This document shows positions 8,837 through 34,948 of a stretch of 64,000 nucleotides of DNA, piece by piece. Source of the stretch: Bolinopsis microptera (taxonomy: Eukaryota > Ctenophora > Tentaculata > Lobata > Bolinopsidae); assembly GCF_026151205.1 (NCBI RefSeq), contig NC_087084.1, positions 11,127,453-11,191,452 of the forward strand. Direction: 5' to 3'. Under the pieces are notes generated by a model that was not told the origin of the DNA, did not search any database, and saw only the letters and a list, made by a program, of their open reading frames with translations. Numbering within the stretch: position 1 is the first letter of the stretch; each line of letters opens with the position of its first letter. The translations under genes and the position numbers were made by a program.

Positions 8837-9262
8837 TTGAACTAGAGTACGTGCTGAACTAGAGTACGTGTTGAACTAGGGTACGTGTTGAACTAGAGTA
8901 CGTGTTGAACTAGGGCACGTGTTGAACTAGAGTACGTGTTGAACTAGGGTACGTGTTGAACTAAAGTACGTGTTGAACTAGGGTACGTGTTGAACTAGGG
9001 TACGTGTTGAACTAGGGTACGTGTTGAACTAGGGTACGTGTTGAACTAGGGTACGTGTTGAACTAGGGTACGTGTTGAACTAGAGTACGTGTTGAACTAG
9101 GGTACGTGTTGAACTAGGGTACGTGTTGAACTAGAGTACGTGTTGAACTAGAGTACGTGTTGAACTAGGGTACGTGTTGAACTAGGGTACGTGTTGAACT
9201 AGGGTACGTGTTGAACTAGAGTACGTGTTGAACTAGAGTACGTGTTGAACTAAAGTACGTGT
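8837..9262. repeat. 17-base minisatellite, 25 copies
   Basis: The unit TTGAACTAGGGTACGTG repeats with exact 17-base spacing. The chief variants are GGG, GAG and AAG in the middle. The 426 bases make 25 units with no length slippage. In the flank just upstream (8755-8830) diverged half-units using TCGAAC occur, which suggests the source sequence. Confidence 0.97.
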
Positions 9263-14637: not shown

Positions 14638-17600
14638 ATGTTACCATTACTGTTATCTGTACTCTTCCTTCACTCAGTATCTGCTAAACAGGTTAGTCTC
14701 CCAAGTCCCAACTATACGTTAACGGATGATACTTGAAATGAAATGAAATGAAATAATGTGCTTATATCCCGCCCATATGGTTAGCTGCCGGCACAAGTTC
14801 CAGCTACTAACCAAAACAAGGCTGAAAAGGCTCGTGAGCGCATCAGGAAAACCCACCAAAAGAAAATTCAGTTTCATCTCAACAAACAGGGAACAGAAGC
14901 CAACCCTCCTTCTTCAAATTCCAAACGCAAGAAGTGGAGAAAAGCATCTGCCGAAAAGAAGAAGGCCGGGCGCAAACGCTACCAGAAAAACAAGCAGAAC
15001 CGGAAAAAGTTATGGTTGGAACAGAGAGTCAAGGAGATATCGTCCACAGTTGTGAGAAATCTGTCCCATGTAGAAGTCCCCGATATAGCATTTTTGTATC
15101 TGGCCAAAGGCTTGAACTTTGTGGAAAGTAAAAAGGCAAGTAAGGAAGACCTTCAGTATGACACCAAAGAGTTCTTACGTAAAGTTTCATGGAAGGCGTT
15201 CTTTCATGATAACCCAACTGAGAACAATAGTTTCAACGAAGACGAACATCCTGGCTTAAGGATACCTTCAAGAAGGCATCCTGAGTACAGCAACCCGCTC
15301 TTTGATGAAATAAAAACAAAACTGATGGGTTTCGTAAACAGCTTCATGCCTGCTGACCCGAAGTCTAACCTGACACCAGCAGAGAGGAGAGGGAAGAGAT
15401 GGATTTTGAAAAATATAGAAGATGAGAACATCTTTGTCACCAAAGCTGACAAAGGAGGATCTACCTTGATTCTTGACTATAAGGAAGCTGTGGAATGTGT
15501 TCAAAGGAGCTTAGGAGATAGAGAGAACTTTGCTCATTCCCAAATGTCAGTTGAAGAGAAAATGACAGATGTGAAGAATAATGTTAAGGATGCAGTTCTT
15601 CTGGCTTTATCAGAGGGGAAAATCACAGAAAAAGACAAGAAACTCATTACTGGACTTAATGAAAATAATAACCAAATGCATGCACATGTATTCAAACCAG
15701 TAGTCCCTTATGTGTACCCTCTATTTAAGCTGCATAAATTAAGTCCACAACAGATTGAGGGGAAAATAGTTCCCCCTACCAGGCTTGTCCATGCCACTAA
15801 GGAAGGCCCCCTCTACAGGCTTGAAAAGTGGGTTAGCCCATACCTAACAGATGTAAGTAGGATTTATTGCCAACAGGAGTTTCTCCTGGATACACCAGAC
15901 CTTCTCAGTAACATAAAAAACCTTAATGAATCGGCAGATATGTCAAAATATAGCACCATCAACTTGTTTACTTTAGACGTGATCAGTCTGTATCCAAGCA
16001 TAAAACCTGAAATAGCTATGTCTGCATTGGAACATGCCCTGAACGGTAGTACTATGATTGATAAACGAAAGGCTATCCTGAAAACATTCACGGAGATTAT
16101 CTTCACAAACTCCTTTGTCACTTTCCAAGAAAATGTGTACACAGGCAAAAAGGGTATCCCAACTGGAAATTGTATTTCGCGTCAAGTCGCTGATATCATG
16201 CTTCATTGGGTGCTATTCATCAACATCTGGCCTGAAATGATACAGCTATGGAGTCTTATTTTATTCTGGCGACGCTTCATCGACGATGTCTTTGGAATTT
16301 GGAAGGGCTCCAGGAGGCAATTTGATCTTTTTGTGTCGAAACTAAATGAAGCCGCAAAACGATTTGGAATCCAGTTCGGTGATTGTCAGTTTGGCAAATC
16401 AGTTAACTACTTGGATGTAGAACTCTCCCTGGGGGAGAACAACAACATCGACTACAGACTATTTAAGAAAGAGACTGATGCCAGGCTTTACCTTAATACT
16501 GATAGTTTCCACCCAAACCACGTCTTTAAATCAGTAGTATTCTCACAGATGATCCGAGTGATCAAGCGAAATTCGCAGGATCACACATGTGTGGAGGACC
16601 TGGAGGAACTTAAAGAAGACCTAATGAAAAGTGGACACAAGGAGGGGACCTTAACGGAAACAGAGCCTGAAGCAGTCTTGAGATCAATAGAACACGATTT
16701 GTATGAGAGGGAAGATAAGAAGCCAATCACTGACAAAGTTGTCTTTTCAGTGAAATTTTTCAAAGAGGTCACTGAACTTAGGAAGTTGGTACACTCTACT
16801 AGTGAGGACATCAAACAATTATGCGGAGACGTACAGATATTGTTTGCACTACGTAAACAGCCATCTATAGGCAACACAGTAGTGCGCAATAGAAAACTCA
16901 GTTCGTGCTCCGAAACGGATTCTTTCACCGTCAGCCAAAACTGTGGCGGGAGAGGCTGTGCAACCTGTCCCCAACTGTTCAACTCCAACGAAGTTATCAC
17001 TGTCAATGGTTTGGATTTAACTCTGGATTTCCGGTTGACATGTAAGGACAGCAATATAATTTATGTCGCCCAATGCCAAATTTGTAATAAACTTCCCCAG
17101 AGCCTAAAAGACGATACCTATTTCGGCCAAACGGTTTCTCCATTTCATATCAGAATGAACGGACACAGAAACAAGTTTAAAATTGATAATGAATTGTCAT
17201 TTGAGAAGTCGGCACTTTCCATGCATTGTTTTCTAGCGCATAAATCTGATTTCACTATGGGAGTTTTTAAATTAGGTGTAGTAAGAAAAGTCCGACCAAC
17301 AGCACTTGATAGAGAAGAGAGCATTCTTATTTCAAAATTTAGAACTAATATTTTTGGGTTAAATAGGATTGTAGTTACTCGCTGAATAATCTGTTATGCT
17401 CTGTTGTCCATTCTACCTAGCACATTGAGCTCTTTAATAAAGTTTCAGATTAAAATCTGTTTTAAATTTTCAAGTTGTTAACTTTTAAATTGCTTTCATT
17501 AGTCTAACCTAATTTTATTTTTATAGGCTAGTGATGTAAATATACGAAGAATTCACCTATATTTGTGCTGTCTTACTATGTGTCCAAACCAAATTGAGCT

Positions 17601-20600: not shown

Positions 20601-23600
20601 GACCCCAAACCCATGGCCATACATGTAGGCGTAGCTGAGACACCTCACAGCAAGTAGACCAAAGTGGCTCTTGCTTGTGAAAGGTGTATCAACTCCCCGC
20701 TTGGTTCAGCTAGGCCTGATGGAGTTCTTTTCCAATTATTCAATTATATTTATACAGTTATATATAGTATAGCCTTCTGAAGCAGCCCACAAGTGAGCCA
20801 GAAAGGAGGTTAACTTATTTTATTCCAGCTGTTGTGAGCCTAATGATCATTATGAAAGTCTGGAAATAGAGATCAAGAGTCTAGCTGACTCATTGAAACT
20901 GAAAAGACGTTGAAACTGGGATAAAAAACATTACACGAACGCCCAAAAAGATGAACCAATTGATATGAGCAACGTTTAAAGTTGAACAGCGTTTTAACGT
21001 TGTATTTAATTTTGGATTGTGAATGAAAAGTTCTTAAACGTTTTAATTTTATAGGCCACCGTTGGTTAATTTTAAAGGTTAATTTTTTAACGTTGAACTA
21101 TTTCATGCACGAAAACCCATTTGATGAAGATGATATGCGATATTAAACACTGATCATGTACACTTCTTTAACATTTTTACTGCTAAAAATCATTTTCTGA
21201 AATTAAAAAAACGTTTTAAAAAATGAAAAAAATTCGGATTTTTGATGGGTTTGAGTGCCTTCTAGCGTTCATATTAATGTCCGTTCATAATTATGTCCGT
21301 TTATGTAATGTCCGTCCAAATATTAATAAGGTCCGATAAGGTAATAGATTTGTAGTGTTGTAATTAGTTTAAAACTGACTACCGATCAGTGATCAATGTC
21401 TCAGCGACTCCTCCTTATACTCACAAAATCCTTACCTACTTACCTATAACTCTATTACCCCTGCAGGACTGTATTCCCGACCAGTGGGAGGACTGGAGTT
21501 CCTGTACAACAACTTGCGGTGCTACCGGTACACGGCAGCGGAGTAGGCAAGTGCTTCAATACGTCTAGATCACGTAGTTTAAGTGCCAGCTTTTCGCGGT
21601 TGAGGCGTTAGACTTTTAAGTCCTAGTTTGATCGTATTAATTGACGATGCCATTCTCATTAGGTTCAGTTCTTGGTGCTTTAGTAAATTTAGTTTAGTAA
21701 TGATGAGTGCAACTTGTTGAATTGCTCCTCATGTGTATCATGTGATACAAGTATATAATCGTGGTAGATACTGACAAGTAAATTTCAGGAAAATAGCAAT
21801 ATTACCCACTGTTGACGGTGTACAGTGTAGTTCCCTGGACTTTCTGGAAGTAGAGGGGTGTAACAGGTATCTGAGAGATTTACTTCAAGATTTCTAAAGT
21901 TTCAGCTTCTTTTGATTCCATCAGCTGCCTTGTTATTCGGCTGAATGAACGACAAATAGATATTTGTTTTGGCAAATTACAATGATCACGAAACAAAGCG
22001 TTGTGTTTAGTTACGTAAACCAAAATTTGTCTTTAAATACTCGATTTTCTTCTACAATTTATTTCCCATGACAATAACCGAGCGCATGGTGTATTAAGTT
22101 TTCCAATCACAACCACACAATCTTATTGCTTGTAAAATAACGCGGTATTCAAAAAAATTTACGAATAATTCTTCCCCACGTATATTTATCCACAAAAGTA
22201 TCACATCAAGTGCAGCGACTCTCTTATTGTTATTTACCTTATCGGACTTTAATTTGGACGGACCTTAAATGAACGGACTTTATTTAAACGGACATTAAGA
22301 TGAACGTTAGGGTCTCCAGCGTTCAATTAATGTCCGTCCAAATAAGGTTCGATAAGGTAGTTCTAGTTGAACAGTGCAGCAGTACATCTGAACACAATAA
22401 CACAGCTCCCTTTAATTCCAGGTTTTGCGAGAACGGCGGTATCCTACAATCCACAATGTGTCAGTGTCTCCAGGGGTACTCCGGTTCATGCTGCGAGCTG
22501 GGTAAGTGTCAGTTTAAACTCTAAAAGAGCTGGGTAAGTGTCAGTTTAAACTCTAAAAGAGCTGGGTAGTGGGTTAATTTCAGTTTAAAATCTAAAAGTC
22601 TCAACTCTTCAGCATAATTTCATTAAAGGCTATTACCTTTTTGCTATACACTATAATACAGTTATAATCTGTAGTTGTACTGTATTCTAGAATTTAAAGT
22701 CGGTATCGGAGATTTCAAATGATCAACAAATAATTTAAAAAGTGTTCACCTATATTCAGATGTCGATGAATGCGCTAATGCTAATGGTGGCTGTCAACAT
22801 AAGTGTGTTAACGAGATTGGATCCTTCAAATGCGAGTGTTTCGCCGGATTCGAACTGAACGACATGAACGTTTGTAAAGGTAAAGTTTGTTTTTAGTTTT
22901 AGCATCTTCTTCAGAATCATAAGCTCATAATCTGGCTGTTACTATGGTGAGAGAAATATGTTTTACACAAGTGGCCCGTTTTAAGCAAGGGTTTAAAGGT
23001 GTATACCTTCAGATATTGACGAGTGTAGTGTGGGTAATGGCGGTTGTGACAATTTATGTATGAACTACTACGGTAGCCATGTTTGTGGTTGCATACCTCC
23101 TAAAATATTGGAGATGGACGGACGGTCATGTTCATGTAAGTTCCTTATCGTTATAAATCTCGTTACTTGTGCTACTCTATTTATCTCAACTATATTTAAA
23201 ATAAAATATTCATTATTCGTGCATCTGATGTGGAATATTCTGAATTCGCACGATTTTCATTCCACTCTATACTAAAAATAACCTCTCTCTTTCTCCACAG
23301 ATATGATATAACTAATGCCTGCTAAATTAATTAATTAATGTTAAAGATGTACATTTATATTTACTGTCAGGATACATTTTGTAAATCAATTGTGTTATAA
23401 TTTGTTTGTAATTGATTCATTTTAAAGATTTCAATAAAAACCTCGCTCTCTCTTTCCAGCGGAGAACCACTGTGTCACCGACCCGGACGCTGTTCACTGT
23501 GAACACGGGTGTGTCATCCACAACAACCAGTTTAAGTGTGAATGCCCTGAGGGCTTCACGCTTAACGAGTCTAATTTCGAGTGTGACGGTAAATAATTAT

Positions 23601-26600
23601 AAATGATTATTATGATAGTTATTATTATTTCCTTGAGTACCTGCATAGTTATTGTATATTATTATAACGATAACTTAATTGTGATAAATTTAGCTTTATT
23701 TTCTCCATTGATAGTTTGATGGTCAGCCATGAATTTTATGATAACCCAACCGAGATATTGATGAATGTCAGAGTAACCCCATGTTCTTGTTTCAGATATT
23801 GATGAATGTCAGAGTAACCCCATGTTCTTGTTTCAGATATTGATGAATGTCAGAGTAACCCAATTTTCTTGTTTCAGATATTGATGAGTGTCAGAGTAAC
23901 CCCATGTTCTTGTTTCAGATATTGATCAATGTCAGAGTAACCCCATGTTCTTGTTTCAGATATTGATCAATGTCAGAGTAACCCCATGTTCTTGTTTCAG
24001 ATATTGATGAATGTCAGAGTAACCCAATTTTCTTGTTTCAGATATTGATGAGTGTCAGAGTAACCCCATGTTCTTGTTTCAGATATTGATGAATGTCAGA
24101 GTAACCCCATGTTCTTGTTTCAGATATTGATGAATGTCAGAGTAACCCAATTTTCTTGTTTCAGATATTGATCAGTGTCAGAGTAACCCCATGTTCTTGT
24201 TTCAGATATTGATCAATGTCAGAGTAACCCCATGTTCTTGTTTCAGATATTGATGAATGTCAGAGTAACCCCATGTTCTTGTTTCAGATATTGATGAATG
24301 TCAGAGTAACCCCATGTTCTTGTTTCAGATATTGATGAATGTCAGAGTAACCCAATTTTCTTGTTTCAGATATTGATGAGTGTCAGAGTAACCCCATGTT
24401 CTTGTTTCAGATATTGATCAATGTCAGAGTAACCCCATGTTCTTGTTTCAGATATTGATCAATGTCAGAGTAACCCCATGTTCTTGTTTCAGATATTGAT
24501 GAATGTCAGAGTAACCCAATTTTCTTGTTTCAGATATTGATGAGTGTCAGAGTAACCCCATGTTCTTGTTTCAGATATTGATGAATGTCAGAGTAACCCC
24601 ATGTTCTTGTTTCAGATATTGATGAATGTCAGAGTAACCCAATTTTCTTGTTTCAGATATTGATCAGTGTCAGAGTAACCCCGTGTTCTTGTTTCAGATA
24701 TTGATCAATGTCAGAGTAACCCCATGTTCTTGTTTCAGATATTGATCAATGTCAGAGTAACCCAATTTTCTTGTTTCAGATATTGATGAGTGTCAGAGTA
24801 ACCCCATGTTCTTGTTTCAGATATTGATCAATGTCAGAGTAACCCCATGTTCTTGTTTCAGATATTGATGAGTGTCAGAGTAACCCCATGTTCTTGTTTC
24901 AGATATTGATGAATGTCAGAGTAACCCAATTTTCTTGTTTCAGATATTGATGAGTGTCAGAGTAACCCCATGTTCTTGTTTCAGATATTGATGAATGTCA
25001 GAGTAACCCAATTTTCTTGTTTCAGATATTGATGAGTGTCAGAGTAACCCCATGTTCTTGTTTCAGATATTGATGAATGTCAGAGTAACCTCATGTTCTT
25101 GTTTCAGATATTGATGAATGTCAGAGTAACCCCATGTTCTTGTTTCAGATATTGATGAATGTCAGAGTAACCCCATGTTCTTGTTTCAGATATTGATGAA
25201 TGTCAGAGTAACCCCATGTTCTGTGCTGGGGGTACGTGTATTAGTGGGCGGGGCCCTAACAAGGCTCTTTGTAACTGTGGTATTGGTAGAGGACTAGACT
25301 CAGATGGAGAAAAGTGCATTGGTTAGTGTTTTATTATCAGTTTCAGTTAGTTGGTTAGTGTTTTATTATCAGTTTCAGTCACAATATTGGCTAGTGTTTT
25401 ATTATCAGCTTCAGTCACAATATTAGTTAGTGTTTTATTATCAGTTTCAGTCACAATATTGGTTAGTGTTTTATTATCAGTTTCAGTCACAATATTAGTT
25501 AGTGTTTTATTATCAGTTTCAGCCACAATTATTATATCTTCATTTTTTGACTCCATTATAATACGAGTCTATAATGTAAGTGTATCAAATTGGAGGGTTG
25601 CTATGTTTTGAAACTAGGATCTTACAGATTTCAGCACATATCTATAACCCATCTAACTCGGCAGATGTTGACGAATGTAAGGCAGGGATCAGCCAGTGTA
25701 GTCACACGTGTGTAAATAAGAATGCTGGTCACGTGTGTCTCTGCCCGGCTGGTATGATCATTGGAAAAGACCATAAAACTTGTGAAGGTTAGTAGGACAG
25801 CCTGCTAGGTATAGCACATTCGAATGGCTGGCGCGCGCTACTGCAAGCGCGAGGGCCCTGGTTAGAGCAAAGTAGCACATTGGATCTTATCTTAGATTGT
25901 TTTTAATTTGTAAACTTGCTCTTGAAAATTTTTGTCGTTTGCAGGAGACAGACGATTTTGTAATCTGATGTATATCCTCAAGAATACTAAGCAAAACTAA
26001 TAATGATATCGATTTTATATTATTCTAAACAAATAATTGTTTTATTAAATAATCGATTTATTTAAATTAAAAGAAAAAATTAAAGAATATGTACTGTTCA
26101 GATGAGAATGAGTGTCTGAGGGACCCACCGCCCTGTTCCCACTCTTGCCATGACCTGACAGGGAGCTATGCGTGCGCCTGTCCGGCTAATATGGAACTGG
26201 AACATGATAACAGAACTTGCTGTGAGTTAACATAATATAGTACACTAAAACAATACATCATTTTCTGCATTAAATATCAGTGATACGAAACAATTTATCA
26301 ATTAACGAACTTATATATTAATCAATTAGTTAAAACAGTTAATTACTATAACTGAAACAATTTAGCTGCTCAGCTGTGTCCAAAGAAGTTTCTTCATTAA
26401 AGCATTATCTTACTAACCAGTTTGTCTATAACCACGCTATTCCAGACCCCCTTACCGTCCTTATCTCAGGTGAGATAGGAAAGTGTATAAGACCCCTATC
26501 TGCTGAGGGTAAGACCACCACGTCACAGAAACTAGTTATCGCGGTGTCCGTGCTGGCAGTGGTGATTGTGGGTATTCTAGTGGTAGTAATCTGGAGAATG

Positions 26601-28621
26601 TTGAAGAGGAACCTCAGTACCAGTGAAAAGGTTTGTTGTTCATTAGATTTAAGGTTAATGTTTAGTTGGTGTTGTTAATATGGTGCAGGTTTCGGGCGTG
26701 CAAATCTCGGCTGGGTGCCACCATACCACGCCGATGGATTTACATGTCGGCGAGGTGTCTCGTCGAAATGTAAATTTAGGAAATTTGAGCGTTTCACCGA
26801 TGCTTGCTATGCAAAAATTACCTCGACTTACTTGTAAAAGGAATAAAGAATGCTGGATCATGAATGTGCGAGTGCACAGTTTTACGTTTCGCTAAGTTTA
26901 TAAATAGATTCGACCTCACGTTTCGAGACTGAAGCCCCAAAAATAGGACCAGCGTTCAACCCCACTTAATAAGTTAATACCACAGAAAGTTCTCGTACCC
27001 CGCTTTACCCTGTTCTCGTAGGTGCTAAAAGGTGTGACCATGGCCACATTTTACAATGACCAGGAACATGAGCCCCGAGCTGCTGCGCTGTATTCTGATT
27101 CAGCGTCCCATATTCTTGAGAGAAGAAACTCAGATCAGATCACAGTTCACAGATCAGCTCTGACTTCACAGAGTTGGGGGGATGAGGGTTCAGATCGTGT
27201 TATTTATAAGAAAACAGGTGGCTGAAGTTAGAACATGGTTGAGATGAGTCTGTTTGTTCCACTTTCCAGTTGATTTTTTAATCGGGTGCCAGTCTAATTT
27301 ATTAAATAAACTCCCCAAGATGCAGGCCAACGATATTAAAGATCAGTTAAATTTCAATCACAACAATACTTTAACATTGGAGGTAAAAGTTTATTCAGTT
27401 CAATTATATTGCCAGCTAAAGGAGTTCTTACTTCTTCGCTAACGTACTGCTAGTTGATACGTATCTTAAACAATATTAAATTAGTCGTGCTGACTGATGA
27501 GGTGCCTCTCTAAATTCGGTAACTGCTTTTTTACCCTTTTAAAGTGTAATCTTACACTATAATCTTACCCTTTTTATTTTTCTATCTTACTATTTTCACT
27601 TTTTATCTTATGCTAGAGCTATCGCGTTTAGACTATCGCAAAAGAACCCATTTTAATTTTTCGCTATTGTTAATACTGAACCCACTCTTATACTCTGCTA
27701 AATTCTGATATCAGAGACCAACCAGTCACCAATTAGAAACAAATTAGCAACAACCAATTAGAAACAAATTAGCAACAACCAATTAGAAACAAATTAGCAA
27801 CAACCAATTATTAACTTAAACTCTGTTACATTCTGACAAAATTTGCATTAAATCTAAAAGATAACAAACTCTGCTGACCTTGATAACTCTAAATTCAAAG
27901 CACTTTTATAGTGATCCATTATGATATAGCTAATTAGTAATTGGTACTAACTAATTAATCTCTCAGGTGCTAAGAGCAATAAAGCACGGTGAACCCAGCC
28001 CACCTGACGTTTTCTACAACCCTAACACAGAAAGTAAGTAAATTAAACTGCACCAGTAAGTCATGGTATTTAGCTTTCATTTTAAAAATAAAATAAACAA
28101 GTTGTGTTCTCCTCTGTGAAGTGCCTAGTGACAGTGTCTTGGTCTTACATGGTCTATTGGTCTTGCTTTCCTCTTAGAGACAGAGTGTATTAGACAAACA
28201 AAGAAGTTGGGTTCTCCTCTGTTTTATATGTGCCATCATTTAGATGAGCGTTGAGCATGCAAGTAACAATAAAAACCACGTGTATCACACCTCGGTAACT
28301 AAAACACTAACAGTGATATTCTAACCGATCAGTTTTCATTTTGGAATCATTTAACATTTTTTGTTTGATTACTGAGTTTGTAAATAATAATAAAAAATTC
28401 AGTTTTGATCTGACACATGTGTTAAATTATAAAGATCTTTCTAATTTTCTACTTTTCTACTTTTCTACTTTTCTAATTTTCTAATCTCTGATATTCTCAC
28501 TCTTCTAGGTATGGAGCTGGAAACTAGAGGTATGGGAGTAGCAGATGAGGTATCAAGAGCTGAGCCGTACCAAACATTCCACAGGAAAAATGTTAAGAAT
28601 TATGGTATTACCGAGGAGTAG
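14638..28621 (+). CDS. Single-pass membrane protein: signal peptide, TSP1, EGF/cbEGF repeats, TM, cytoplasmic tail
   Basis: Fifteen exons join in phase to 594 residues: 14638-14691, 21467-21546, 21789-21866, 22422-22501, 22760-22879, 23013-23135, 23460-23588, 25190-25321, 25665-25787, 26102-26221, 26374-26630, 27022-27217, 27270-27382, 27967-28033, 28509-28621. Order: signal peptide (MLPLLLSVLFLHSVSA); TSP1 (about 19-71, WEDWSSCTTTCG...); EGF (FCENGG...); cbEGF modules with DVDEC/DIDEC starts (99-307) and an EGF starting DENEC; membrane helix about 400-420 (LVIAVSVLAVVIVGILVVVI) followed by WRMLKR; tail 433-594. EGF exons are phase 1-1, typical of shuffled modules. Intron 2 uses a GC donor (AG|GCAAGT). 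It is probably a cell-surface adhesion or signalling protein. No orthologue is claimed. AATAAA at about 29183 may end the transcript. Exon 11 has two in-frame acceptors (after 26373 or 26467). Confidence 0.88.
14731..14756. repeat. GAAAT microsatellite before the Penelope frame
   Basis: About four copies of GAAAT/TGAAA lie just 5' of the element's open frame. They may mark the 5' junction. Confidence 0.6.
14785..17385 (+). CDS. Penelope-like element: reverse transcriptase with C-terminal GIY-YIG endonuclease
   Basis: An open frame of 866 codons runs from just after a stop at 14782-14784 to TGA at 17383-17385. The first about 90 residues are Lys/Arg-rich (KKAGRKRYQKNKQNRKKLW). RT signatures follow in order: LDVISLYPSI at about 15973-16002, GIPTGNCISRQVADI, and RFIDDVFGIWKG at about 16275. 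The C-terminus has the GIY-YIG pattern IIYVAQCQICNK...YFGQT...HRNKF with a preceding Cys-rich segment (CGGRGCATCPQ). This is the architecture of endonuclease-containing Penelope-like elements, which retrotranspose by target-primed synthesis. No ATG occurs in frame before the basic N-terminus, so the start is non-ATG, spliced or lost. The frame is unbroken, so the copy is young. It lies in intron 1 of the EGF/TSP1 gene, same strand. AATAAA is at about 17437. Confidence 0.93.
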   Translation: MPAQVPATNQNKAEKARERIRKTHQKKIQFHLNKQGTEANPPSSNSKRKKWRKASAEKKKAGRKRYQKNKQNRKKLWLEQRVKEISSTVVRNLSHVEVPDIAFLYLAKGLNFVESKKASKEDLQYDTKEFLRKVSWKAFFHDNPTENNSFNEDEHPGLRIPSRRHPEYSNPLFDEIKTKLMGFVNSFMPADPKSNLTPAERRGKRWILKNIEDENIFVTKADKGGSTLILDYKEAVECVQRSLGDRENFAHSQMSVEEKMTDVKNNVKDAVLLALSEGKITEKDKKLITGLNENNNQMHAHVFKPVVPYVYPLFKLHKLSPQQIEGKIVPPTRLVHATKEGPLYRLEKWVSPYLTDVSRIYCQQEFLLDTPDLLSNIKNLNESADMSKYSTINLFTLDVISLYPSIKPEIAMSALEHALNGSTMIDKRKAILKTFTEIIFTNSFVTFQENVYTGKKGIPTGNCISRQVADIMLHWVLFINIWPEMIQLWSLILFWRRFIDDVFGIWKGSRRQFDLFVSKLNEAAKRFGIQFGDCQFGKSVNYLDVELSLGENNNIDYRLFKKETDARLYLNTDSFHPNHVFKSVVFSQMIRVIKRNSQDHTCVEDLEELKEDLMKSGHKEGTLTETEPEAVLRSIEHDLYEREDKKPITDKVVFSVKFFKEVTELRKLVHSTSEDIKQLCGDVQILFALRKQPSIGNTVVRNRKLSSCSETDSFTVSQNCGGRGCATCPQLFNSNEVITVNGLDLTLDFRLTCKDSNIIYVAQCQICNKLPQSLKDDTYFGQTVSPFHIRMNGHRNKFKIDNELSFEKSALSMHCFLAHKSDFTMGVFKLGVVRKVRPTALDREESILISKFRTNIFGLNRIVVTR
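17386..17684. other. 3' region of Penelope element and junction with LINE
   Basis: There is no ORF here. AATAAA occurs at about 17437. The phrase AGCTACTAACCA appears here (about 17597) and also at about 14805 inside the element's 5' part, which may reflect partial terminal repetition. I looked for and did not find a convincing hammerhead ribozyme core. Confidence 0.4.
17685..18536 (-). CDS. LINE ORF1 protein (coiled coil plus RRM-like nucleic-acid chaperone)
   Basis: This is a 283-residue uninterrupted frame. Residues about 55-130 form a charged coiled coil (FLIRSQNSVIKLQSELLEGK). The C-terminal half has the conserved ORF1p pattern of CR1/L2/Jockey-type LINEs: SRNLVVFGLMETDDEKLSDK, then EAVRIGRR, RPVKISVSN, VFISPDRSPEEQ and a final RRYYIRSGIICC. 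Such proteins bind element RNA and act as chaperones. No ORF2 follows; downstream the sequence runs into the 3' end of the Penelope-like element after 300 bases, so the LINE is interrupted or 3' truncated. It lies antisense in intron 1 of the EGF/TSP1 gene. Confidence 0.85.
   Translation of the reverse strand: MSARSVYLTETHQDFQSWITELEEASNCDESEFSAEQFEKPGKPTKKVISNLLYSVYRHMKQFVGEAVKMKEDVEELKNFLIRSQNSVIKLQSELLEGKLKQLESVQTTVKSAVQESVQAEIRSYSKAVSKVPPETALTEQSLKKVVQSAVSKEDRSRNLVVFGLMETDDEKLSDKVDELFEQIEVKPRYEAVRIGRRLADKTRPVKISVSNTNNVHEILLKSKKLKLSQHHKTVFISPDRSPEEQTKHHLLVLEMKQKAKDDLNRRYYIRSGIICCEDKILH
18537..19030. other. Non-coding, probably LINE 5' region and intron
   Basis: A short ATT repeat at about 18978-18993 is the only recognisable item. 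Confidence 0.4.
19031..19735 (-). pseudogene. Decayed LINE reverse transcriptase C-terminus (thumb and tail)
   Basis: An open segment of 127 codons (19732-19349) contains LGSLLCTEKDIQRRRILADI, LRLYDAQVASVLIYNSNSW and DTLYRRHLRSILNIKWPKG. These match the conserved post-catalytic region of many LINE RTs (SLRLRLYNALVxSVLLYGSExW...RRxLRxILxIxW). Further down, in other frames, follow RWKMFGHILRSMENTPAETA and then GRLGRPRMNLLSVLRSDL...RNIAACNRCWENV, which are the next conserved blocks. At least two frameshifts separate them. It is a dead fragment of a different LINE from the ORF1 at 17685. Confidence 0.8.
19759..21343. mobile_element. pogo-type DNA transposon relic with CCTTATCGGAC terminal repeats
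   Basis: Terminal inverted repeats CCTTATCGGACCTTAT at 19761 and ATAAGGTCCGATAAGG ending 21341 are flanked by TA. Multiple subterminal AATGTCCGT/ACGGACATT copies lie at both ends. Inside at 19963-20133 (plus) is a transposase remnant: LLGLPEAQKTLIVYDVFKGH, then NNIVHELVPANITNLFQPLH. This is the DDE_1 pattern of pogo/Tigger/CENP-B-type transposases. The rest of the transposase is lost, and a stop follows at 20132. The element is nonfunctional. Confidence 0.85.
22235..22359. mobile_element. MITE of the CCTTATCGGAC family, 125 bases with TA flanks
   Basis: It has the same terminal repeats as the relic at 19759 (CCTTATCGGACTTTAATTT and a matching reverse end GATAAGG), with internal GTCCGT/ACGGAC repeats, in the intron only 63 bases before exon 4 of the EGF/TSP1 gene. 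Confidence 0.88.
22495..22600. repeat. 32-base tandem repeat carrying the exon 4 donor splice site
   Basis: The last coding bases of exon 4 plus the donor (GAGCTGG|GTAAGTG) and following intron are repeated: an exact copy at 22527 and a degraded copy at 22559. Confidence 0.9.
23753..25228. repeat. 41-base minisatellite: 36 copies of the exon 8 acceptor splice site
   Basis: Each unit holds TTCTTGTTTCAG|ATATTGATGAATGTCAG, a complete 3' splice site and the first codons (DIDEC) of a cbEGF exon. From 23753 to 25188 the spacing is exactly 35 x 41 bases. Only the last copy runs into the rest of the exon (25190-25321). Variants (GAATG, GAGTG, CAATG, CAGTG; CCCATG or CCAATT) fall in a higher-order pattern. 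Confidence 0.97.
25321..25530. repeat. 36-base minisatellite: about six copies of the exon 8 donor
   Basis: The array starts at the donor G|GTTAGTGTTTTATTATCAG and repeats about every 36 bases (25321, 25353, 25389, 25425, 25461, 25497), so five further GTTAGT or CTAGTG donor-like sites follow. Confidence 0.93.
27729..27810. repeat. 25-base tandem repeat, about 3.3 copies
   Basis: The unit CCAATTAGAAACAAATTAGC plus AACAA lies in intron 13 of the EGF/TSP1 gene. Confidence 0.9.
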
Positions 28622-31840: not shown

Positions 31841-31847
31841 GAGATGG

Positions 31848-32560
31848 AAGCAACCAGAGGGATGGTTAGATGTATAAATTTGGGGATTGAAGTGGTTTGA
31901 AGTAACCAGAGAGATGGTTAGATGTATAAATTTGGGGATTGAAGTGGTTTGAAGTAACCAGAGAGATGGTTAGATGTATAAATTTGGGGATTGAAGTGGT
32001 TTGAAGTAACCAGAGAGATGGTTAGATGTATAAATTTGGGGATTGAAGTGGTTTGAAGTAACCAGAGAGATGGTTAGATGTATAAATTTGGGGATTGAAG
32101 TGGTTTGAAGTAACCAGAGAGATGGTTAGATGTATAAATTTGGGGATTGAAGTGGTTTGAAGTAACCAGAGAGATGGTTAGATGTATAAATTTGGGGATT
32201 GAAGTGGTTTGAAGTAACCAGAGAGATGGTTAGATGTATAAATTTGGGGATTGAAGTGGTTTGAAGTAACCAGAGAGATGGTTAGATGTATAAATTTGGG
32301 GATTGAAGTGGTTTGAAGTAACCAGAGAGATGGTTAGATGTATAAATTTGGGGATTGAAGTGGTTTGAAGTAACCAGAGAGATGGTTAGATGTATAAATT
32401 TGGGGATTGAAGTGGTTTGAAGTAACCAGAGAGATGGTTAGATGTATAAATTTGGGGATTGAAGTGGTTTGAAGTAACCAGAGAGATGGTTAGATGTATA
32501 AATTTGGGGTTGAAGTGGTTTGAAGTAACAAGAGAGATGGTTAGATGTATACATTTGTGG
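31848..32560. repeat. 52-base minisatellite, about 13 copies
   Basis: The unit GTGGTTTGAAGTAACCAGAG plus AGATGGTTAGATGTATAAAT plus TTGGGGATTGAA has exact 52-base spacing (for example 31891, 31943). The matching place on the left arm (about 30539-30590) has one copy. Confidence 0.97.
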
Positions 32561-33393
32561 ATAAGATAAGATAGCTGGAAGGATCTTCTGAAACTGAATT
32601 GTGTTGCTCCATAAATATTATCTGAATGTGTTCATGCTGAACATTTTGCTGTGCTGCAAGTGAAGTATCTGTAAGACTTTTTTAGCCCGGGATACCAAAA
32701 TTAAGTACATGTGTTACTAACTTAGGATGCACGAAAGTTAAAACAGTTTTTAATGAATATCTCCAAAACTAAGCACTATAAACCCTATGATGCTTTAAAG
32801 CTTGTAAATAAATGTGGCCTTTGCAGTTAGTTTGAGGTAAAAGAGAGGCCCCTACAACGTTCAGAAGCCGAGATACAAAAGTCATATATTTGCGCCTGAG
32901 GGTAATTTAGAAATGTCCCCCTAGGGTTGGGATTACTGATAGAAATTGCGTACCTTATCAATTCTGATCCAGAATGACCTTACAAAAGACCTGGTTTCTA
33001 GAAAAGTTGTAGACACCAAACTGCATACTCGATGTCAATAAGCTTCTAGAGTAGATTTTTTCACTCTCGCCCCAGTGAAAATCGGTTTTTCTGGCTTTTT
33101 TCCAAAAGTAAGCATTTTGGGCCTTTATACCCTTCATAGTGTCAATATAAATATGTCCATTGCGGTCATTTTAAGCCAAAGTTTGAGTCTCTAAGACCTT
33201 CAGAAGCTGAGATACATATTTCCCATACATGCGCCTAATGTGAAATATGGGCGTGGCCCCCACAGGGTTGGGACTAGCGACACAAAATGTGCCCCTCGGT
33301 GATTTGAGTTACCAATGACCTACTTAACCCGATTCAGTATCAAAAAACTCTGTACATCGAAGTGCACACTCAATCCCTCCCTGCTACTAGAGT

Positions 33394-34848: not shown

Positions 34849-34948
34849 NNNNNNNNNNNNNNNNNNNNNNNNNNNNNNNNNNNNNNNNNNNNNNNNNNNN
34901 NNNNNNNNNNNNNNNNNNNNNNNNNNNNNNNNNNNNNNNNNNNNNNNN
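34849..34948. other. Assembly gap of 100 N
   Basis: A gap of exactly 100 N is the conventional size for an unknown distance. The reading frame to its right (34949-34978) is not shown to belong to the transporter. Confidence 0.99.

What the first reader, a model, noticed from the sequence alone, without database searches (positions are those of the whole stretch)
23753..25321. A 3' splice site and EGF exon start amplified 36 times in a row
The 41-base unit contains a full acceptor (pyrimidine tract plus CAG) and the first codons (DIDEC) of a cbEGF exon. Thirty-five exact 41-base steps lead to the one copy that continues into the complete exon. The spliceosome thus faces 36 near-identical acceptors for one exon. 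Choosing any upstream copy would add 41n bases and mostly shift the frame, unless n is a multiple of three. Each unit also contains CAGA|GTAACC, a weak donor that could define an 18-base in-phase micro-exon. This could be a source of isoform diversity, or a copy-number-variable slippery splice region that must be strictly handled.
Basis: seen in the sequence. Interest (0 to 1): 0.8.

Follow-up and report, generated by a model that had tools for sequence, protein, structure and literature searches.

The report
Splice-acceptor minisatellite ("mirage") in comb jelly
In a comb-jelly-like genome the start of one gene segment, together with the signal that tells the cell where to cut the RNA, is repeated about 36 times in a row; most likely it is a tolerated DNA stutter in which only the last copy can give an intact protein, and similar stutters sit on other genes of the same genome.

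Summary
In detail: 36 copies of a 41-bp unit, no indels, at 23753-25222; the last copy runs into a 132-nt EGF-like exon (25190-25321). Thirty-five copies carry a full acceptor; copy 1 has only a bare AG. None of the 34 upstream acceptors gives an open frame: 'n a multiple of three' also meets a TGA. The micro-exon donor is weak. The structure matches a described class, 'mirages': minisatellites spanning intron-exon boundaries, reported in amphioxus. It is not unique here. The same exon's donor lies in a 36-bp x 6 array, and unrelated genes carry acceptor arrays: 41 bp x 46 (with a 44-bp donor array of at least 98.7 copies), about 40 bp x 18, and 54 bp x 2. In a domain-anchored survey 3 of 54 acceptors and 0 of 52 donors lay in short-period arrays; in its EGF/LDLa part 3 of 34 and 0 of 32, against 80 of 660 intronic probes, so junctions are not preferred targets. 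Most likely these are near-neutral minisatellites; the exon-proximal site makes the protein and mis-splices end in premature stops. The genome fits Bolinopsis microptera. Copy number rests on one assembly; no RNA evidence was available.

The parts
23753..25222 (+). 41-bp x 36 tandem array; each unit = AG + 33 nt of exon start + 6 nt of intron tail, so an 8-nt TGTTTCAG bridges one exon piece to the next
23753..24244 (+). first 12-unit block, 491 of 492 identical to 24245-24736 (recent 492-bp duplication, or an assembly effect)
24245..24736 (+). second 12-unit block
25167..25189 (+). terminal acceptor GTAACCCCATGTTCTTGTTTCAG; the TAAC and most of the pyrimidine tract are copied coding sequence of the exon
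   Evidence: branch-site role inferred
25190..25321 (+). EGF-like exon, 132 nt, phase 1-1, six cysteines
25318..25529 (+). 36-bp x 6 array spanning the donor of the same exon; TTG|GTTAGT kept in three copies (after 25321, 25353, 25461)
22495..22568 (+). 32-bp x 2.3 array spanning the donor GAGCTGG|GTAAGTG of an upstream EGF-like exon
23460..23588 (+). upstream EGF-like exon, phase 1-1
25665..25787 (+). downstream EGF exon, phase 1-1
21473..21547 (+). TSP1-like exon of the same gene
26446..26631 (+). exon with a transmembrane-like stretch (IAVSVLAVVIVGILVVVIW): type I membrane protein (by eye)

Best explanation
This is a mirage: a minisatellite that started as a tandem duplication across an intron-exon boundary and grew by unequal exchange or slippage in a genome whose introns are rich in minisatellites. 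Shown: the unit joins 33 nt of coding exon to 8 nt of intron tail, so each copy has TAAC, a pyrimidine tract and AG, and most of that acceptor, including the terminal one, is built from copied coding sequence. Shown: only the terminal acceptor gives an open frame. Inferred: the spliceosome uses the copy next to the exon body often enough, because exon definition pairs it with the downstream donor; use of an upstream copy gives a premature stop and presumably decay; skipping the symmetric exon is harmless to the frame. The array is then near-neutral and persists. The donor-side array would follow the same rule in mirror image.
For: Array and unit anatomy. 0 of 34 upstream acceptors open in frame here, 0 of 42 exact-motif acceptors in the array upstream of the C8 exon, 0 of 16 in L070. 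Donor arrays in the same gene. Acceptor arrays in independent genes: L026/L049 41 bp x 46, L070 about 40 bp x 18, L029 54 bp x 2. Survey, EGF/LDLa part: 3 of 34 acceptors and 0 of 32 donors (two probe placements each) against 80 of 660 intronic and 0 of 105 exon-interior probes; TSP1 part: no short-period array in the 20 acceptors and 20 donors. Mirages in amphioxus Adh3, globin, TnC and PGBD5 genes are reported or suggested to leave splicing regular (PMC3087553, PMC3902484, passages). TRF repeats are 13% of another ctenophore genome (PMC8527503, passage).
Against: No RNA data: use of the terminal acceptor, decay of mis-splices and even expression of the gene are untested. All 35 acceptors are of about equal strength, so the sequence itself does not say why the last should win. 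The exon scores weakly as EGF and has the weakest of five donors scored in the gene (0.98), so it may be decaying. Three long acceptor arrays (window, C8, C7) with complete 3' splice sites and periods of 40-41 might point to something beyond neutrality. The donor side is less general: 0 of 52 surveyed donors; donor arrays were seen only in the window gene and the C8 gene.
Confidence: 0.72

Rival explanations
1. Functional splice switch: array length tunes how often the exon is made correctly, skipped, or sent to decay, giving an unproductive-splicing control on the membrane protein.
For: Near-equal acceptors; every upstream choice gives a premature stop; symmetric skippable exon; arrays on both sides of it. 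An intronic minisatellite is enriched near exons with multiple alternative splicing in C. elegans (PMC4039745, passages).
Against: Premature stops are expected by chance with a 41-bp unit (inference); junction arrays are not more frequent than intronic ones; folding of three units is ordinary, z -0.58 to -1.18; no RNA evidence.
Confidence: 0.1
2. Copy number is wrong: a real but smaller array, inflated or homogenised by assembly and short-read polishing.
For: The assembly that fits was built with wtdbg2, gap-filled and Pilon-polished (PMC10232365, passages); units 1-24 are two blocks 491 of 492 identical; the window contains an N gap and an error-like stretch.
Against: Nine unit types in a non-trivial order; homopolymer load at 22-26 kb is like the rest of the first 34 kb; comparable arrays at other loci.
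Confidence: 0.1
3. The exon is being lost: it is now always skipped, and both flanking arrays grew because its splice sites no longer matter.
For: Weak EGF score (E 0.022), weakest of five donors scored in the gene, phase 1-1 exon, junction arrays on both sides.
Against: The 132-nt frame is open with six cysteines in EGF spacing; the C8 gene has an acceptor array at an exon that scores well as EGF_CA (35.5 bits).
Confidence: 0.08

Closest known systems
'Mirages' of amphioxus (Adh3, BflGb6, BflGb9; also TnC and PGBD5)
   Different: Other phylum if the assignment holds; far more copies (36, 46, at least 98.7 here, against 3-6 in BflGb6); both borders of one exon; acceptor built from copied coding sequence. 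Regular splicing not tested here.
Human IFI6 (6-16) minisatellite giving multiple splice donors (Turri, Cuin and Porter 1995)
   Same: A minisatellite whose units each carry a splice site.
   Different: Donors of an interferon-induced transcript; the window array repeats acceptors with no RNA evidence. Only the title was seen, in a reference list; the paper is not held and the rest, first author included, is recalled.
Internal tandem repeats at exon-intron boundaries of human segmental-duplication genes (PMC2812944; authors De Grassi and Ciccarelli, recalled)
   Same: Boundary minisatellites that can change splicing and form introns (passages).
   Different: On average 30-bp units repeated 4 times over the variable repeats of that study, with transcript support; 36 copies and no transcripts here.

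Membership tests
Mirage (minisatellite spanning an intron-exon boundary) | Tandem units that contain both exon and intron sequence across a splice junction | tested here: met
   33 nt exon + 8 nt intron tail per unit; last copy continues into the exon. Junction predicted from sequence, not from cDNA
Mirage (minisatellite spanning an intron-exon boundary) | Splice signal repeated in the units | tested here: met
   35 acceptors scoring 3.5-4.3
Mirage (minisatellite spanning an intron-exon boundary) | Concerted homogenisation of units with a divergent cluster edge | tested here: met
   12-unit blocks 491/492 identical; left-edge AG degenerate; polishing could contribute
Mirage (minisatellite spanning an intron-exon boundary) | Copy-number instability between alleles or cells | not testable with these tools
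   single assembly; one locus only
Mirage (minisatellite spanning an intron-exon boundary) | Regular mRNA splicing despite the repeats | not testable with these tools
   no transcript data held
Alternative tandem acceptors / micro-exon cassette | Alternative acceptor gives an open frame | tested here: not met
   0 of 34 open in frame
Alternative tandem acceptors / micro-exon cassette | Micro-exon has a credible donor | tested here: not met
   score -2.43; 3 of 52 assigned donors lower, so weak rather than impossible

The most novel reading that the evidence does not exclude
Ctenophores carry out spliced-leader trans-splicing (PMC8527503, passages). A run of 35 acceptors facing one donor could be an internal trans-splicing hub: upstream copies take a spliced leader and start 5'-truncated mRNAs, while the terminal copy takes the cis exon, so array length would set the balance between full-length and truncated products. 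If general, splice-acceptor mirages in this genome (3 of 54 surveyed acceptors) would be heritable, length-tunable switches between cis- and trans-splicing.
Probability: 0.04. Interest if true: 0.9.

Novelty: new member of a known kind. Interest (0 to 1): 0.48.

Why it matters
How the spliceosome picks one of many equal 3' splice sites is normally studied with artificial duplications. Here nature offers dozens of near-identical acceptors before one exon, in several genes of one animal, in which only the last gives protein. Long-read cDNA would show directly whether exon proximity, first-come use or scanning decides. It also suggests that boundary minisatellites, discussed as a source of new introns in amphioxus, are not a cephalochordate peculiarity.

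Tried and rejected
Multiple-of-three rescue: rejected. Micro-exons: weak donor. Hairpins hiding upstream acceptors: z -0.58 to -1.18, ordinary. Splice junctions as hotspots for array birth: not supported; in the EGF/LDLa set 3 of 34 acceptors and 0 of 32 donors, each probed at two placements, against 80 of 660 intronic probes at one placement.

The TSP1 sample is different: local copies, at any distance, in 8 of 20 acceptors, 9 of 20 donors, 35 of 80 exon-interior and 135 of 360 intronic probes. The junction offsets printed are all 320 bp or more (one of nine at L094 was not printed), and 9 of the 11 loci concerned also show exon-interior copies: these are mostly whole-exon duplications, so I did not count them as short-period arrays.

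Rows dropped before counting: of 30 EGF_CA loci, 19 used (L024 is the window gene; 10 long open frames or unclear ends); of 30 LDLa loci, 16 used; of 150 TSP1 matches listed, 20 taken for short open frames. Several exons belong to the same gene or are paralogues, so they are not independent. Junctions were assigned by hand from script candidates, with splice-score weights recalled from human consensus. Random 200-kb samples of the genome could not be had. A related-species comparison was not made: the genome search says this genome has no relatives held.

Full report
OBSERVATION. The region 23753-25222 is a tandem array of a 41-bp unit, 35.9 copies by TRF, no indels. Sixty order-1 Markov simulations of the first 42 kb gave no TRF score above 59, against 2660 for the array. 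Read in phase there are 36 units in nine sequence types, in the order AABCDDBCABED AABCDDBCABFD GCDCBCBCHAAI. Units 1-12 and 13-24 are 491 of 492 identical: a recent block duplication, or an effect of assembly or polishing. An exact 30-mer of the unit has 9 hits in the 264.65-Mb genome, all here.

ANATOMY. The last unit continues into an open, phase 1-1, 132-nt exon at 25190-25321 with six EGF-spaced cysteines. Unit 36 departs from the consensus only from its 36th base on, so a unit is AG plus 33 nt of exon start plus 6 nt of intron tail. In the array an exon piece ending ...CCCCATGTTCT is followed by TGTTTCAG and the next exon piece. The TAAC and most of the pyrimidine tract of each acceptor, including the one that serves the intact exon, are therefore copied coding sequence. 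TAAC or TAAT lies 10-40 nt before 20 of 34 surveyed acceptors, against 265 of 770 control windows, so GTAAC at 20 nt is a plausible branch site, no more. The AG before unit 1 has no usable tract (score -10.7; the other copies 3.5 to 4.3): the acceptor function now sits at the far end of the array (inference). The gene, on the + strand, has a TSP1-like exon, several EGF-like exons and a transmembrane-like exon. The exon next to the array is the weakest EGF match of the seven scanned (PF14670, E 0.022, under the cut-off); 4 of the other 6 pass some family's cut-off.

BOTH ENDS OF THE EXON. The donor of the same exon lies in a 36-bp x 6 array (25318-25529), with the donor TTG|GTTAGT kept in three copies. 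Another donor of the gene lies in a 32-bp x 2.3 array at 22495-22568.

WHAT SPLICING COULD DO. For n = 1 to 35 upstream starts I read the joined exons. n=1 meets a stop 146 nt into the exon, every larger n meets TGA after 86 nt; 0 of 34 full upstream acceptors is open in frame. The same test gave 0 of 42 in the array upstream of the C8 exon and 0 of 16 in L070 (exact acceptor motifs only). Such stops are expected by chance in arrays of this kind (inference); they show only that upstream use is unproductive. The proposed micro-exon donor scores -2.43, with 3 of 52 hand-assigned donors lower. RNA folding of three units is ordinary (z -0.58 to -1.18).

NOT ALONE. Searching this genome for EGF_CA, LDLa and TSP1 domains gave exons chosen without regard to repeats. 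On C8, a gene with EGF and PSI-like stretches (MEGF8-like by eye) has, in 10 kb read in gene direction (L049), a 41-bp x 46 array whose unit holds CACACTAACATGCTCTGTCAG|GGTAACTTTGA and whose last copy enters an EGF exon; a 44-bp array of at least 98.7 copies that runs off the fetched piece and starts at the end of the next exon (TCTCAG|GTTTAA); a 42-bp x 3.2 donor array; and a 31-bp x 15.8 array over a donor-like site. On C7 an LDLa exon (L070) is preceded by about 18 copies of a 40-bp unit ending TTTAACAAATAACTTTGCAG|AGAAGATC. On C13 another EGF exon (L029) has a two-copy, 54-bp version.

SURVEY. Among the EGF/LDLa exons outside the window gene, 3 of 34 acceptors (the three just named) and 0 of 32 donors have local copies, each probed at two placements; 80 of 660 intronic and 0 of 105 exon-interior probes do, at one placement. 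In the TSP1 set no short-period array sits on any of 20 acceptors or 20 donors; the copies seen there (8 acceptors, 9 donors, 35 of 80 exon-interior, 135 of 360 intronic probes) lie about 320 bp or more away and are mostly whole-exon duplications. Together: 3 of 54 acceptors and 0 of 52 donors in short-period arrays. Acceptors are thus hit no more often than introns, and donor arrays were seen only in the window gene and the C8 gene. These arrays look like overflow of intronic minisatellites that selection tolerates at acceptors. Samples are small, hand-assigned and partly paralogous.

ORGANISM. Total size 264.65 Mb and contigs C1 to C13 of 15.2 to 26.2 Mb that add up to about 258.1 Mb, 97.5% of the total (lengths), match the published Bolinopsis microptera assembly: 265 Mb, 13 chromosomes, largest 26.2 Mb (PMC11797021, passage), with 97.23% of bases in 13 scaffolds (PMC10232365, passage). 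The scaffold count differs (346 against 232), so this is a strong inference, not proof. That assembly used wtdbg2, gap filling and Pilon (PMC10232365, passages); the exact copy number and the near-identity of units deserve caution.

COMPARISON WITH WHAT IS KNOWN. [quoted passage not shown] PMC3902484, passage). Human boundary repeats can create introns (PMC2812944, passages), and the IFI6 minisatellite offers multiple donors (title seen, otherwise recalled). The window array meets the structural definition of a mirage; instability and regular splicing could not be tested. A library search for 'ctenophore' with 'minisatellite' gave two papers whose titles are unrelated. The listings (20 of 983 shown; 8 of 8; 2 of 2; 7 of 7; 15 of 32 shown) hold no title on splice-junction arrays in ctenophores. 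Passages of the two ctenophore genome papers searched for 'minisatellite' and 'splic' mention none. The library lacks most subscription papers, so this is weak evidence of absence.

VERDICT. Real and striking, best read as a very long mirage in what is probably a ctenophore, one of several in the genome, with the exon-proximal acceptor as the only productive site. Function beyond tolerance is possible but unsupported.

Noticed in passing
window 42000-64000: Homopolymer-laden sequence: runs of 4 or more make up 22-53% of bases per 2 kb, against 6-12% in the first 34 kb; looks like unpolished long-read sequence.
   Followed up: partly
window 34849-34948: 100-N scaffold gap inside an open frame on the minus strand that looks like a nucleoside transporter (by eye).
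   Followed up: no
L065 (C10:5855281) and over 60 of the 150 LDLa matches listed: LDLa repeats in long open frames of about 500-2800 aa; the one read (L065) ends in a seven-helix GPCR-like part (by eye): perhaps a large, apparently intronless LDLa-GPCR family.
   Followed up: partly
L094, L096, L095 (TSP1 loci): Whole TSP1 exons tandemly duplicated together with their introns at about 320-620 bp spacing.
   Followed up: partly
L026 / L049 array unit (C8): The unit reads TGTCAG|G|GTAACT: an acceptor followed after one base by a fair donor (score 2.19), a possible dual-use splice site repeated about 46 times.
   Followed up: no
window 14785-17385: 866-aa open frame that looks like a reverse transcriptase of a Penelope-like element by eye, but no Pfam family matched at E 0.001.
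   Followed up: partly
window 8837-9262 and 31847-32562: Two further minisatellites (17 bp x 25, 52 bp x 13.8); no exon junction was recognised at their edges by eye.
   Followed up: partly
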